64,000 nt of DNA from Brachypterus glaber (lineage: Eukaryota > Arthropoda > Insecta > Coleoptera > Kateretidae): assembly GCA_958510825.1 (NCBI GenBank), contig OY294050.1:9463340-9527339 (forward strand). The letters run 5' to 3'. The notes beneath the pieces were generated by a model. That model was not told the DNA's origin, made no database searches, and worked only from the letters and a program-made list of their open reading frames with translations. A program made the position numbers and the translations under genes. Each line of letters begins with the position of its first letter. Within the stretch, counting starts at the first letter, position 1. Below are positions 2,475 through 61,446 of the stretch, one piece after another.

Positions 2475-3488
2475 ATGAGTGATAAAATGGTGAAGAAGGA
2501 AGAAACTATCCTAGTAGTACCGACTATGGCCCGTACTCCTTTGAAACAAACGTATTCTTCGTTTTCAATCAGTTCCTTGCTTCCAGAAACGGTTTTGGAA
2601 GCTCCAGAGCAAGTTCCAAAATCTCCAGAACAAACTTCAGAAACCGAAATAAGTGATTCCGACTGTGATTTGGATGTAACTGGCACACCTCCACCCCTAG
2701 ATTGTTCCAAATCTTCCGAAGATAGAGATGGTGATAAGAAATCAAATGAAAAACCACCCTACAGTTATAATGCTTTAATCATGATGGCTATAAGAAACAG
2801 TCCCGAAAAACGACTTACTTTAAATGGTATCTACGAATATATTATGACTAACTTTCCTTACTACAAAGACAACAAACAAGGTTGGCAAAACAGTATCAGA
2901 CATAACCTAAGTTTGAATAAGTGTTTTGTCAAAGTACCCAGACATTACGATGACCCAGGAAAAGGCAACTACTGGATGCTGGATCAATCCGCTGAAGACG
3001 TTTTTATCGGTGGTACGACTGGCAAACTTAGAAGAAGGTCGACAGCCGCTTCCAGATCCAGACAAGCAGCTTTCAGAAGGACTTTGTCGCTTTACAACCC
3101 AATACAACCAATGTATCCAGGTTTTTACCCACACAATCCAGCTTTGTTGGCTGCTTACAGGTATAATCCATATTTACCTAGTGCACAGCCCACGATTCCT
3201 GTGATGCCAAGGCCCAATATGGGACAAATGCCACACCATCCTGCTCAGTTTTCCATGGAAAGGCTTTTGGCACAAACTACTCCCTTGGATATTGCTTCTT
3301 CGCCCTTCTTCAGGCCTCAGATGGATATATACGGTAACTTTAGGTTACCTAGTCATCACCATATGAACCAAATGATGGGTCAGCCTATGCCCTTATCACC
3401 TACTAGTTCGTCTAGTTCACCAGAGCCTAGAACCACACCGGAACACACGATTTTTAAACCAATTACTTTGATTTCACGGCAAAGTTGA
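2475..3488 (+). CDS. slp: Forkhead transcription factor, sloppy-paired/FoxG type
   Basis: A 337-residue nuclear DNA-binding protein, complete and intronless within the ORF. Residues 93-188 form a full forkhead domain starting [15 protein letters not shown], with recognition helix [13 protein letters not shown] (139-151) and the wing-2 segment [13 protein letters not shown] that marks the FoxG class. FSISSLL at residues 30-36 matches the eh1 motif that recruits Groucho, so a repressor role is expected. The N-terminus is acidic and Ser/Pro-rich; the C-terminal third is rich in Pro, Met, His and Ser. In insects the family (slp1/slp2) acts in segmentation and head and neural patterning. TAA directly precedes the ATG in frame, so the start is Met1 or Met5. 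Codon use is more GC-rich than the flanks. Whether it is orthologous to slp1 or slp2 cannot be decided here; no second slp lies in the window. Confidence 0.95.
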
Positions 3489-10787: not shown

Positions 10788-10983
10788 AATAGAAAAATAG
10801 ATAAGGACAGAAATTTTTAATTTTAAACAAAATTATAAAAATATTAATTTATTATTAATTAGATTAGGAGAGGTATGCGTAGTTTTCTACATCTAGAAAT
10901 AGATGGAGCACAAGTCTACATCAATCTAATGGCTATATTCCTTTTGCGAGTAAAGTCTAAAAACGTTTTCTTAATCAGCGTGC

Positions 10984-11048
10984 AGAGTTGACTCTTGGTA
11001 CTGAAGAGGGCCAGCAGCCCGAAACTGTCAGTCTACCAATATCACTCT
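10984..11048 (+). ncRNA. Hammerhead ribozyme, type I, intact core (copy 1)
   Basis: Stem I pairs TTGGTA (10995-11000) with TACCAA (11034-11039) and continues after an internal loop with AGAGT (10984-10988) and ACTCT (11044-11048). The core CTGAAGA (11001-11007) fits CUGANGA. Stem II is GGGC/GCCC with loop CAGCA. GAAA (11021-11024) follows. Stem III is a very short ACT/AGT, and the cleavage triplet GTC ends at 11033. Every invariant core base is present, so self-cleavage between 11033 and 11034 is predicted. Confidence 0.85.
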
Positions 11049-11337
11049 GTACGATGATTAGAAAATAGATTGATGGAATAATAAATTAATATTTTTATAA
11101 TTTTGTTTAAAATTAAAAATTTCTGTCCTTACTAATTTTACGTCTAACCACCCGTTAGTGGTACTATGTGCTTGAGACACACAAGTCTTCAACTTGCTAC
11201 CATTCAAAGTCTCCAGATTAGGAGAGGTATGCGTAGTTGTCTACATCTAGAAATAGATGGCGCACAAGTCTACATCAATCTAATGGCTATATTCCTTTTG
11301 CGAGTAAAGTCTAAAAACGTTTTCTTAATCAGCGTGC

Positions 11338-11402
11338 AGAGTTGACTCTTGGTACTGAAAAGGGCCAGCAGCCCGAAACTGTCAGTCTACCAATATCACT
11401 CT
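11338..11402 (+). pseudogene. Hammerhead ribozyme, probably dead (copy 2)
   Basis: Same stems and GAAA/GTC elements as copy 1, shifted by 354 bp, but the core reads CTGAAAA: A replaces G at 11360, the invariant G8 that acts in catalysis. Stems I, II and III are unchanged. The copy should fold but cleave very poorly or not at all. Confidence 0.75.
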
Positions 11403-11448
11403 GTACGATGATTAGAAAATAGATTGATGGAATAATAGAAAAATAGAT

Positions 11449-28227: not shown

Positions 28228-28785
28228 AAGGAAAATATGTAAAAAAGTAAAAGTGAAATTAAAAGGAGTGTATTTGAGCTTACACTAAATATACAATATC
28301 CACTGTAAGGAGTATTTTATGAAATGTGAAGCATAACATATCACCATGACTTGTTTTCAATTGTTTTCGGGGTGGCATGAGGTCGTTGTTGCCCTAAATA
28401 AATAATTTCATAAATCATATTTAAGACCCTATTGTGTGGGCTTAACGGATCGTAGGAAATAAGTGCAATATGTGTGTAGTACACAAAACGATTTTGGCCA
28501 AAACTTGACTGACAATTCGACTGGAAGATAACGGATATGTGAAGGGGAAAATTAAAAGATTTCTTCATCGGAAATCACCATTGGTTTAATAATGGCTGAA
28601 TTTTATATCCATGGGAAATTTTCAATTGATTGAAAACCATGTTTTGTGAAGGATAATAGAATAATGTAATATTAACCCTTATAATTGTAATTACCATTAA
28701 AAGAAAAAAAAACAATTTAGAGAAATTGTGGATTTCCAGACATTTTTGTTCACAAATACCTAAATTCATAGAATTTGAAAGGGGG
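28228..28785. other. Intergenic, nothing recognised
   Basis: AT-rich unique sequence. Minus-strand ORFs of 64-75 codons show no domain. Confidence 0.35.
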
Positions 28786-28903
28786 TTTCAGTAATTGAAT
28801 TTTTAATGTCAAAATTGCCACATGAGGAAACTGAGTTGGAAATGTTTCAGTAATTGAATTTTTAATGTCAAAATTGCCACATGAGGAAACTGAGTTGGAA
28901 ATG
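28786..28903. repeat. Perfect 59-bp tandem duplication
   Basis: A unit beginning TTTCAGTAATTGAATTTTTA and ending GAGTTGGAAATG occurs twice head to tail without a mismatch (28786-28844, 28845-28903), so it is recent. Confidence 0.9.
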
Positions 28904-29179
28904 TTGGAGGATCCACAAATCCATGGAAAAGAAACAAAGGAAAAAAATAAGGAATTTGGCAAGAAAAATATCAAAAGAGGAAATAAGTTCAAAATAAGTT
29001 ACTTGATTTGAAGAAGGCAAGGTATTTGTTTACAAATGTTTTATTAGTGTCTCGAATCCTACGCGGACGAAGTCGCGGGTCTTCTGCAAGTATATTATAA
29101 ATGTAGAGTTGTACAATTAAGTTATTTTCTATAAGTATTTTATAATAATTTTTGTAAGCATGTACAATTTTTGGTTGTA

Positions 29180-31452: not shown

Positions 31453-31752
31453 ATAAAGTTGGATAGGTAATAGGTGTATTGTATTTTATTCCATAAAAAT
31501 TATTTTAAAAATTATATTCTTCTGAACCCATTTTTGTTCAATTTTTTATTTCGGATTATTTAGTCTGTTCTTTATGTCCGATTTGTATGATAACACAGCA
31601 AAAATTCCTTCCCTAAGAGACATAAAGTTAAAAAACAATTTAATTAAAAATAAAATGTTGTATTGAGTCCACTTGAGATAAACTAATAACAAATTTTTGA
31701 TTTAACTATGATTTTTAAAGATAATTTTATACTTTCGTACTTGTCAATACTA

Positions 31753-32176
31753 CACGGAAAGAAATTAGTGGGCTCTGCGCTATACATTATAAGATATTTG
31801 GTAACAGTGGCAAATTATAGTGATTTAAGCTATAGATTATAAGGGACACAATAACTAATAATGTTAAAAATAAATTGGAAACGATTATATATATTACAGA
31901 CACGATTATATTTATTACAGGCACTATTATAAATTTACAGAAATTTTATTATATTATAAAAATTATTAGCACGGACAATAATTAAATCTATTTAAGCTAT
32001 AAATGCCATACTATTTGTTATATTTTATTATTCACTAAACAATTAAAGTATTTCATATAAATTTTTACACTGACTGCCATAATTGTAAGAGAAAGCCTTG
32101 TATTTATATAATAAGCGATTATAATTTGCTTGGTATGTGTGTTATAGCGCTCCTAGCTATAATTTTTTTTTCCGTG
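31753..32176 (+). mobile_element. TA-flanked MITE, CACGGAAA family, copy A
   Basis: Begins CACGGAAAGAAATTAGTG and ends TTTCCGTG, flanked by TA on both sides, as for Tc1/mariner-type insertions. Copy B at 35270-35672 is its inverse with only one substitution and one 21-bp deletion over about 400 bp. No coding sequence. Confidence 0.85.
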
Positions 32177-32336
32177 TAAACCTAAAAAATCTTTTATCCT
32201 ATTAGTTATTTCTTAAACTTTATATAAACGTACGTATAAAAAACGTGTAACAGATTTAGATATTTTAAAAGGTAATCAGAATAAGCAACTGTTATTGTTG
32301 CTTTAATAGTACCTATAATTTTCTAGGGGTTCGTGT

Positions 32337-35267: not shown

Positions 35268-35269
35268 TA

Positions 35270-35672
35270 CACGGAAAAAAAAATTATAGCTAGGAGCGCT
35301 ATAACACACATACCAAGCAAATTATAATCGCTTATTATATAAATACAAGGCTTTCTCGTACAATTATGGCAGTCAGTGTAAAAATTTATATGAAATACTT
35401 TAATTGTTTAGTGAATAATAAAATATAACAAATAGTATGGCATTTATAGCTTAAATAGATTTAATTATTGTCCGTGCTAATAATTTTTATAATATAATAA
35501 AATTTCTGTAAATTTATAATAGTGCCTGTAATAAATATAATCGTGTCTGTAATATATATAATCGTTTCCAATTTATTTTTAACATTATTAGTTATTGTGT
35601 CCCTTATAATCTATAGCTTAAATCACTATAATTTGCCACTGTTACCAAAGAGCCCACTAATTTCTTTCCGTG
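35270..35672 (-). mobile_element. TA-flanked MITE, CACGGAAA family, copy B
   Basis: Reverse-complement copy of 31753-32176, flanked by TA (35268-35269, 35673-35674). Relative to copy A it lacks 21 bp (TATCTTATAATG..GCA near the CCAAA/GAGCCC junction) and differs by one base in the CTC(G/T)TACAATTATGG segment. Confidence 0.85.
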
Positions 35673-35674
35673 TA

Positions 35675-36057
35675 GATCGCGGAATACGTTCCTCCCGTTA
35701 GCCCCTTCTAAAATTTTGCATGCAGAGTAGTGATACCTATACTATTCATGAATCGAAAATGGACATCAAAATGCACTTAGAAAAACAGAGGGCCTGCAAA
35801 TAAATTGTAACTAATTTGGAAATGATTTATTGATATTTTTAAAATATATTACTTATCACCGCCTTTAAAAATATCCTTGAGCAACATGTTATCCATTAAG
35901 ATGTTTACAGCATCTGATATTTTGCTCTATAGGCGGTCTGTGATAACAAACTTGAGAGTTTTTAATATTTTACTTGAAAATGTGTGATGTTTTTAGTCAA
36001 ACAGATACAACTTTATTGATAAGTATTTTTTTTGTGAATGAAATATCGAGGGTGGTC
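35675..36057. other. Intergenic, nothing recognised
   Basis: AT-rich unique sequence. Confidence 0.35.
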
Positions 36058-58140: not shown

Positions 58141-59328
58141 GAAAAAATATGAAGTTTCTTATTTTAAAATTTATATATGTATGTTAAACAGGAAATATGA
58201 TTTTCATTTAGCTTTAGTTTTCTTGGTTTTATAAAATACATAGCTGTTTAATGGGTTGCCTATTCCTAAATAAATGCAAACTTGAGTTTACTTATTAAAT
58301 TAGATTTCTGTGGTTATGTTGCCATATAAGACAATAAAATTGTACTGTTTTACATTTTGTAAGAAAAATACTGTATTTTTGATGGTTTTTATGTAATGTA
58401 AGTTAACTAAATAAAAAATTAAGTAATTTTTATAAGATCTAAACGGTCTAGACTAGACAGTAATGGTCAAAATAGTAACGTTATAACTATAGTTTTTAAC
58501 TTTGACATGAAAAACAGATATATTTGGATTAAAACACTAAAAGATATAAAAGGCTGTGGTGAAAGGTGGTTTATAAAACAAGGTGAATAAGATTCGTAGA
58601 ATCTACGAGGTAAATATCTAAATAAAATTAGGCAAACCTCCATACATAAATATCACACGAGTATGATATAAAAATATCAAACTAGTGCGATATGAGGCGT
58701 TTTCTAAAGAACAAAGGAGTGTGCTAAATATCGTTTTCATAGAGGATCGTAGGAAAAAGTTATTACCGAACTTTCCTTTATATCGATACCCCCAAGCAAC
58801 AAAGCCGTAACTCATATATTGTCATTTTTCACGACCTAAATTTCTAAAATATTTTTTTTTCTTATTTAAGGGTGGGGAAATGATTGAAGTGGAAAAGGAA
58901 GCCATGTTATATATCATTTGAAAGCTTATAACATTCTCTATTTAACTCTATAAGTAAACATTGTTTATTTATTGTTTGTTTCTGATAATATTCAAAATTA
59001 GAATTTCTTACTTTAGTGTTTTTAGGTAGACTTTTGGTTAAAATGGCCTGTGGAGAAATCTGAGTAGTACCACCATGTGTGTCTTTTTTCAAGGCGTTTA
59101 CCTATGAGTATAACTCAAAATAGGTCTAACTTGAGTTACATCCTTGTTGTATGGGAGTGTCGATATATATTTTTCAAATTTGCTAAAATGAGTCATAATA
59201 AAGATTTAAGAACACAATAATAAAAACTAGGCACGTATGTTATTTAAAACATTTTGGTCATGACTAACTTGAACTTAAACCTGATTTTTTATCATTTTAC
59301 CTATTTTATTTTCAATTGAAATTTAGTA
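58141..59328. other. Intergenic, nothing recognised
   Basis: AT-rich unique sequence. Confidence 0.35.
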
Positions 59329-59488
59329 ATTGGTCAATTAAAATTTAGCCACTGTTGTATACATTTTTCTCAGTAGGCTTAGTATGTAGAACTTTTAAGA
59401 AAATTGCAATTGGCCAATTAAAATTTAGCCATTGATGTATACATTTTTCTCAGTAGGCTTAGTATGTAGAATTTTTAAGAAAATTGCA
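59329..59488. repeat. 80-bp tandem duplication
   Basis: CAATTAAAATTTAGCCA..CTCAGTAGGCTTAGTATGTA occurs at 59335 and 59415 with only a few differences. Confidence 0.85.
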
Positions 59489-61038: not shown

Positions 61039-61442
61039 TGCTGGCCCTCTTCAGTACCAAGAGTCAACTCTGCATGCTGATTAAGAAAACGTTTTTAGAT
61101 TTTATTTGCAATAGGAATATAGTCATTAGATTAATGTGCGCCATTTATTGCTAGATGTAGACAACTACTCATACCTCTCCTAGCCTGGGGACTTTGAATG
61201 GTAGCAAGTTGAAGACTTGTGTGTCTCAAGCACATAGTACCACTAACGCGTGGTTAGACGTAGAATTAGTAAGGACAGAAATTTTTAATTTTAAACAAAA
61301 TTATAAAAATATTAAATTATTATTCCATCAACCTATTTTCTAATCATCTTACAGAGTGACATTGGTACTGAAGAGGGCCAGCAGTTCGAAACGTCAGTCT
61401 ACCAATATCACTACGATGATTAGAAAATAGATTGATGGAATA
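61039..61442. mobile_element. Inverted hammerhead-ribozyme element copy
   Basis: 61039-61367 read on the minus strand is a nearly complete monomer of the 354-bp unit: it starts TACCAATGTCACT, the predicted 5' end left by ribozyme cleavage, and ends inside the next ribozyme (..TGAAGAGGGCCAGCA). Joined to it on the plus strand is an intact ribozyme (61355-61412). 28-bp inverted repeats (61321-61348, 61415-61442, one mismatch) bracket that ribozyme. No target duplication was found. Confidence 0.75.
61355..61412 (+). ncRNA. Hammerhead ribozyme, type I, intact core (copy 3)
   Basis: Stem I is AGTGACATTGGTA/TACCAATATCACT, 13 pairs with one C-A mismatch. The core is CTGAAGA (61368-61374). Stem II is GGGC/GTTC with two G-U pairs and loop CAGCA. 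GAAA is at 61388-61391. A minimal stem III (AC/GT) is closed by GTCA. The cleavage triplet GTC ends at 61399. All catalytic bases are kept although stem II has drifted. Confidence 0.8.
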
Positions 61443-61446
61443 ACAA

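What the first reader, a model, noticed from the sequence alone, without database searches (positions are those of the whole stretch)
10788..11448. Tandem hammerhead-ribozyme retroelement with a 15-bp target duplication
Seen in sequence: two units 354 bp apart, each with CTGA-GA / GGGC-GCCC / GAAA / GTC and complementary stem I strands, an inverted 54-bp cap at the 5' end, and AATAGAAAAATAGAT on both sides. Established: animal retrozymes and Penelope-like elements carry type I hammerheads with very short stem III in tandem units. Inference: this is a non-autonomous element moved through self-cleaved, possibly circular, RNA.
Basis: partly seen in the sequence, partly recalled or inferred. Interest (0 to 1): 0.88.

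Follow-up and report, generated by a model that had tools for sequence, protein, structure and literature searches.

The report
Ribozyme retroelement with two-sided insertion
This is a small non-coding mobile element carrying self-cutting (hammerhead) RNA motifs, and its copies in the same genome bear the insertion marks of Penelope-type retrotransposons, which points to the kind of enzyme that moves such elements in animals.

Summary
A second, diverged copy lies at 61039-61444.

Main result: how copies are built. Of 48 elements read, 34 are two-armed (inverted left arm joined head-to-head to a direct right arm). Both outer ends could be assigned in 30: 27 have one end ~97 and the other ~50 nt downstream of the HHR cut, 3 have both near 50, none both near 97. 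Exact duplications of >=11 bp flank 19 of 22 tested copies versus 0 of 462 mismatched controls.

Three of five two-armed copies of a Penelope-like element (PLE; RT + GIY-YIG) in this genome show the same two-site layout, and it matches the two internal RT start sites reported for an Anolis PLE (PMC11167929). A 2020 review says no motif in retrozymes reveals their helper (PMC7761336); this signature may. Cleavage, circular RNA and the particular helper are not shown.

The parts
10788..10802 (.). left copy of the 15-bp target duplication AATAGAAAAATAGAT
   Evidence: 17 bp if the flanking T and A are counted
10803..10856 (-). left arm ('cap'): inverted unit, outer end at unit ~97 (site S2), inner end at unit ~44
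   Evidence: exact reverse complement of 11077-11130; start sequence AAGGACAG shared by the left ends of other copies
10857..11433 (+). right arm: direct, 1.6 units, ending at unit ~50 (site S1); the last bases overlap the duplication
10995..11039 (+). hammerhead copy 1, intact core, predicted cut 11033/11034; extended stem I about 10966-11065
11349..11393 (+). hammerhead copy 2, G8 changed to A at 11360, predicted inactive; cut position would be 11387/11388
11034..11387 (+). one full 354-nt unit, numbered from the predicted cut; S1 at about 11083, S2 at about 11130
11434..11448 (.). right copy of the 15-bp target duplication
61039..61367 (-). second element, inverted arm, unit 337 to 1, about 92% identical; its outer end does not lie at S2
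61368..61444 (+). second element, direct arm ending near unit 50; the joint falls in the self-complementary stem I; no target duplication found
61361..61406 (+). third hammerhead motif (CTGAAGA, stem II kept by G-U pairs)

Best explanation
A metazoan-type non-LTR retrozyme, mobilised in trans by a GIY-YIG Penelope-like reverse transcriptase through two-sided target priming. SHOWN from sequence: a 354-nt non-coding HHR unit; dispersed copies, most with duplications of 9-16 bp; head-to-head arms whose outer ends lie at two fixed sites, S1 (~50) and S2 (~97 nt after the HHR cut), usually one site per arm; the same layout in three PLE copies of this genome. INFERRED: the PLE protein makes a staggered cut about 13 bp wide; the 3' end of one strand starts reverse transcription at S1 and that of the other at S2 of retrozyme RNA that is a circle or an uncut multimer; the two antisense cDNAs grow inward, often beyond one unit, and are joined, giving an inverted-plus-direct insert. 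Tandem units would come from repeated laps or from multimeric RNA.
For: End sites: 27 of 30 assignable two-armed copies are S1/S2, 3 S1/S1, 0 S2/S2; P 3.3e-6 if ends were chosen independently (sequences). Leaving out the three copies chosen for being two-armed: 24 of 27. Duplications >=11 bp in 19 of 22 copies against 0 of 462 controls. PLE copies L066, L068, L075 have one end about 50-60 and the other 88 nt after an HHR-like motif, with duplications of about 12-15 bp read by eye. RT and GIY-YIG domains in those PLEs. Anolis PLE: extends both strands, two adjacent internal RT start sites, tail = stretch between them (PMC11167929, parts 1-2 of 4). Template: 26 of 27 50-arms read through the cut site, 22 of 27 exceed one unit; units within an element are more alike than between elements.
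Against: No PLE with the retrozyme's own S1/S2 or HHR sequence was found in the PLE loci read. Two of five two-armed PLE copies (L067, L069) and the window's second element have an outer end at neither site. The Anolis study saw no start-site difference between strands in vitro. Several elements mix unit variants (L015, L039, L042, L046), which a single unit-length circle does not predict. L085 and L086 have different flanks but the same internal joint. Rfam scores are far below gathering. The end table was made by hand.
Confidence: 0.8

Rival explanations
1. Snap-back or self-priming: one cDNA folds back, for instance at the palindromic stem I, and copies itself to give the inverted arm, as proposed for rotifer PLEs in PMC3846280.
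For: Joints of L012, L023, L025 and the second window element fall in the self-complementary stem I; three copies have both ends near 50 (L018, L027, L042a), as this model predicts.
Against: It would repeat the same outer end on both sides; 27 of 30 copies have two different ends.
Confidence: 0.08
2. LINE-type twin priming: an ordinary LINE moves the unit and the inverted arm is the usual by-product.
For: Inverted 5' segments and duplications of this length also occur in LINE insertions (recalled).
Against: Twin priming starts at scattered internal places (recalled), whereas the inverted arm starts at ~97 in 27 of 30 copies; PLE copies of the same genome share the layout; no poly(A) or simple tail is seen at the right end.
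Confidence: 0.05
3. The unit is the solo or tandem pseudo-LTR of a Penelope-like element of this genome rather than a retrozyme proper; it inserts by the PLE's own machinery in the same way.
For: PLE pLTRs carry type I HHRs, tandem and inverted copies and tails (PMC3846280). Many PLE lineages here were not read.
Against: In the PLE loci read, unit matches are separate insertions or short diverged stretches, not the flanks of a PLE frame.
Confidence: 0.15

Closest known systems
Metazoan non-LTR retrozymes (PMC7229834; outline and sections 13, 14, 17 read)
   Same: Non-coding tandem unit of 170-400 nt with a type I HHR, GC under 50%, no LTRs, target duplications longer than 4 bp; reported in insects among others.
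   Different: Head-to-head arms with two fixed outer sites are not described in the sections I read; RNA circles are shown there and not here.
Penelope-like elements, e.g. Anolis PAc (PMC11167929) and Adineta Penelope (PMC3846280, passages)
   Same: Two RT start sites about 30-50 nt apart shortly after an HHR; inverted copies; a tail on one end; short target duplications; extension of both strands in vitro.
   Different: The unit here encodes no RT or endonuclease; the start sites sort one to each arm in 27 of 30 copies, while the in vitro study saw no strand difference.
Plant LTR retrozymes (PMC4918200, seen only in listings; compared in PMC7229834)
   Same: Non-autonomous, HHR-bearing, thought to spread through RNA circles.
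   Different: Plant ones have LTRs, type III HHRs and 4-bp duplications (PMC7229834).

Membership tests
metazoan non-LTR retrozyme | type I hammerhead in the unit | tested here: met
   by motif and stems (core intact in 58 of 84 sites in the loci's set); covariance models are below gathering
metazoan non-LTR retrozyme | unit of about 170-400 nt, tandem, low GC, non-coding | tested here: met
   354 nt, GC 0.359, longest frame 65 aa; tandem copies
metazoan non-LTR retrozyme | target duplications longer than 4 bp | tested here: met
   15 bp here; >=11 bp in 19 of 22
metazoan non-LTR retrozyme | expressed as self-cleaved linear and circular RNA | not testable with these tools
   no RNA data
metazoan non-LTR retrozyme | no LTR, primer binding site or polypurine tract | not tested
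   no search for PBS or PPT was run; the terminal direct overlap of single units is noted only
Penelope-like element | encodes RT (and GIY-YIG endonuclease) | tested here: not met
   longest frame in the unit 65 aa
Penelope-like element | insertion signature: inverted head-to-head arms, tail, short target duplications | tested here: met
   compared with PLE copies and with PMC3846280
mobilisation by a particular PLE | sequence shared between the retrozyme and its helper at the start sites | tested here: inconclusive
   one PLE family and two further PLE starts read, no clear match; most lineages not read

The most novel reading that the evidence does not exclude
PLE-type enzymes insert by an asymmetric double priming: in each event one target strand is extended from site S1 and the other from site S2 of HHR-bearing RNA, perhaps of one and the same molecule, so that an insertion consists of two cDNAs of the same polarity joined head-to-head. 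Retrozymes would then be RNA parasites whose HHR plus about 100 downstream nt form a PLE loading-and-start module, copied from circles for several laps. The repeated G-to-A change of the catalytic G8 inside single insertions would be a mark of the template or of its copying.
Probability: 0.5. Interest if true: 0.76.

Novelty: new variant of a known kind. Interest (0 to 1): 0.63.

Why it matters
[quoted passage not shown] Two fixed outer sites, head-to-head arms and a tail are such a signature, can be read in any assembly, and here occur in PLEs of the same genome. The copies also serve as a record of PLE-type insertion: they argue that two cDNAs are started separately, at different sites, one on each target strand. 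The self-priming model of PMC3846280 does not predict this, and the in vitro work (no strand difference seen) did not report it. It can be tested directly with purified PLE protein and retrozyme RNA.

Tried and rejected
Rfam scans gave no usable hammerhead call except with 78 bases; L083 as a control was missed too. An exact pattern in viral and genome contigs and blastn in plasmids and phages found nothing. In 63 HHR windows no base pair is changed on both sides, so covariation neither supports nor opposes the structure, and 41 cells are not standard pairs. A helper PLE was sought in 12 stretches of 10 kb, 20 shorter PLE loci and two PLE starts without a convincing match; L050 holds a 72.8% relative over 81 columns. 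The joined flanks of the window element matched only the window itself, so no empty site was seen. A query across HHR and tail returned 0 candidates, although it must match the window: a limit of that search. That G8A marks one dead subfamily is not supported: the tree needs 13 changes (4 of 500 shuffles as low), most branches weak. Post hoc and not relied on: 50-arm inner ends in the HHR, 13 of 27, P 0.0006; 97-arm inner ends at 40-52, 4 of 27, P 0.016. The host was not identified.

Full report
Observation. The duplication, the 54-nt inverted cap, the 354-bp spacing and the first hammerhead are exact. The second hammerhead reads CTGAAAA: the catalytic guanine (G8; numbering recalled) is A at 11360. 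A motif scan found three sites in the window and none in 100 first-order shuffles of one strand. The third belongs to a second, about 92% identical element at 61039-61444. Rfam covariance models stay far below gathering, and they also miss a canonical-looking PLE hammerhead of this genome.

Nature of the element. The unit has 354 nt, GC 0.359 and no frame above 65 aa. In the window's genome (648 Mb, 842 contigs, unnamed) one query gave 266 first-look candidates and another 1510; each time only 40 were scored. I fetched all 38 further loci among the full-length rows, three insertions that happened to lie in PLE loci (L071, L075, L077), and four chosen because opposite-strand hits lay side by side (L079-L082). 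With the two window elements this makes 48 elements (L042 holds two). The sample favours close relatives of the window copy. L035 and L036 share flanks and look like one duplicated locus; L039, L046 and L080 are cut by the end of the stretch.

How copies are built. Number the unit from the first base after the predicted cut. Of 48 elements, 34 are two-armed: an inverted part joined head-to-head to a direct part. In 27, one arm has its outer end at ~97 (AAGGACAG reading inward; 92-107 by alignment) and the other at ~50 (GGAATAAT; up to a few bases beyond). In three (L018, L027, L042a) both lie near 50; only L018 of these has a duplication. In none do both lie near 97. Four two-armed copies were dropped: the second window element (337 and 50), L043 (97-100 and 34), the retrozyme in L075 (98 and 117), and L080 (97-side at the edge of the stretch). 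With ends chosen independently, 27 discordant of 30 has P 3.3e-6; without the three remaining copies chosen for being two-armed it is 24 of 27. The other 14 elements are single-armed, old, array-like or cut. Two more left ends, read later, start at 97-99 (L085, L086; right ends not read).

Insertion is real. Exact repeats of at least 11 bp flank 19 of 22 two-armed copies tested, against 0 of 462 left/right pairs from different copies; at 9 bp the controls gave 4 of 462. The misses are L015, L040 and L041; for L040 another setting had found 13 bp. In the hand table 24 of 27 have 9 bp or more, median 13. No empty site was found for the window element.

The same layout in a PLE. The genome encodes many RT plus GIY-YIG proteins. 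One family, tandem with a period of about 3.0 kb in L067, has five copies with two arms in view. Three (L066, L068, L075) have one end at about 1608-1618 and the other at 1646 (L067 reverse coordinates), with duplications of about 12-15 bp read by eye; L067 and L069 have a short inverted arm that ends elsewhere. The HHR-like motif upstream puts the two ends 50-60 and 88 nt after its cut, close to 50 and 97 in the retrozyme. Its core departs from canonical (TTGARGA plus one extra base). A second PLE lineage has a canonical core, CTGAAGA...GAAACCGGTC|AGCT, about 94 nt before its start codon (L083). In a third (L084) only part of such a motif is seen.

Published work. PMC11167929 (main text parts 1-2 of 4, and passages): a purified Anolis PLE cuts and extends both strands, starts reverse transcription at two adjacent internal sites, and the tail is the stretch between them; no start-site difference between strands was seen, and HHR mutants still inserted. 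PMC3846280 (passages): inverted pLTRs, an optional 31-bp tail on one of them, self-priming proposed. PMC7229834 (outline, sections 13, 14, 17): animal retrozymes, PLEs a strong candidate. PMC7761336 (passages): no motif reveals the helper. The searches listed no title that reports the two-site signature for retrozymes; beyond the four papers named I saw listings only.

Mechanism. Two different outer ends cannot come from one cDNA that folds back and copies itself, which would repeat the same end. They fit two reverse transcripts started separately, one on each strand of a staggered cut, at S1 and S2. The window's cap is then a short S2 transcript of 54 nt that stops just past S1. Template: 26 of 27 50-arms and 17 of 27 97-arms copy through the cut site and 22 of 27 50-arms exceed one unit, so it was a circle or an uncut multimer. 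Units within one young element differ less than units of different elements (5 informative differences in 13 pairs, 2 of 5000 permutations as low, L015 left out); of these, L024's two arms differ at 3 of the 5. This favours a single source molecule. L015, L039, L042 and L046 mix variants, which favours multimers or later change of arrays. The point is open. L085 and L086 share one internal joint (26/204) with different flanks, in line with joining at a short shared sequence, but unexplained in detail.

An unexplained mark. Position 327, the catalytic G8, is A in 21 of 63 units from 17 elements, and differs between units of one insertion in 7 of 16 elements with two or more scored units; the next sites do so in 2. 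The Poisson value of 8e-8 is for a site picked after the fact. On a weakly resolved tree the change is scattered (13 steps). Candidates, none tested: a dead ribozyme protects the template; miscopying opposite G8; mutation of DNA.

Membership. The sequence-level features of a metazoan non-LTR retrozyme that I tested are met, the RNA-level ones could not be tested. It is not a PLE, since it lacks the protein, but it inserts like one. That it might be the solo pLTR of an unread PLE of this genome is not excluded.

Noticed in passing
window 11360; unit position 327 in other copies: The catalytic G8 of the hammerhead is G in some units and A in others of the same insertion, in 7 of 16 elements with two or more scored units.
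   Followed up: partly
window 2475-3488: Open frame of 337 aa with a Forkhead domain (Pfam); best solved match is Forkhead box protein G1. An animal host is inferred; the species was not identified.
   Followed up: partly
G000: Many divergent PLE reverse transcriptase lineages (35-62% identity to the L067 frame), several with open frames over 800 aa; 62 of 4818 candidates scored.
   Followed up: no
G000:C1:17587559-17590325, G000:C2:12155974-12158607: Direct tandem arrays of seven or more retrozyme units at 354-bp spacing.
   Followed up: no
L020:466-898: A 433-bp insert splits a retrozyme copy with 14 bp of the unit (23-36) repeated on both sides, likely a later insertion.
   Followed up: no
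L085, L086: Two insertions with different flanks share the same internal joint (unit 26 to 204); a third locus, C759:3849-3991, has a match of the same length.
   Followed up: partly
L050:317-393: A diverged stretch, 72.8% over 81 columns, related to the unit around the cut site and ending near the S1-like GATGGATTAAT.
   Followed up: partly
window 31750-32178 and 35268-35675: Inverted pair, 95% identical, about 3 kb apart; possibly the ends of another element.
   Followed up: no
window 28785-28905 and 59328-59488: Short tandem duplications: 59-bp unit x2.1 at 100% and 80-bp unit x2 at 95%.
   Followed up: no
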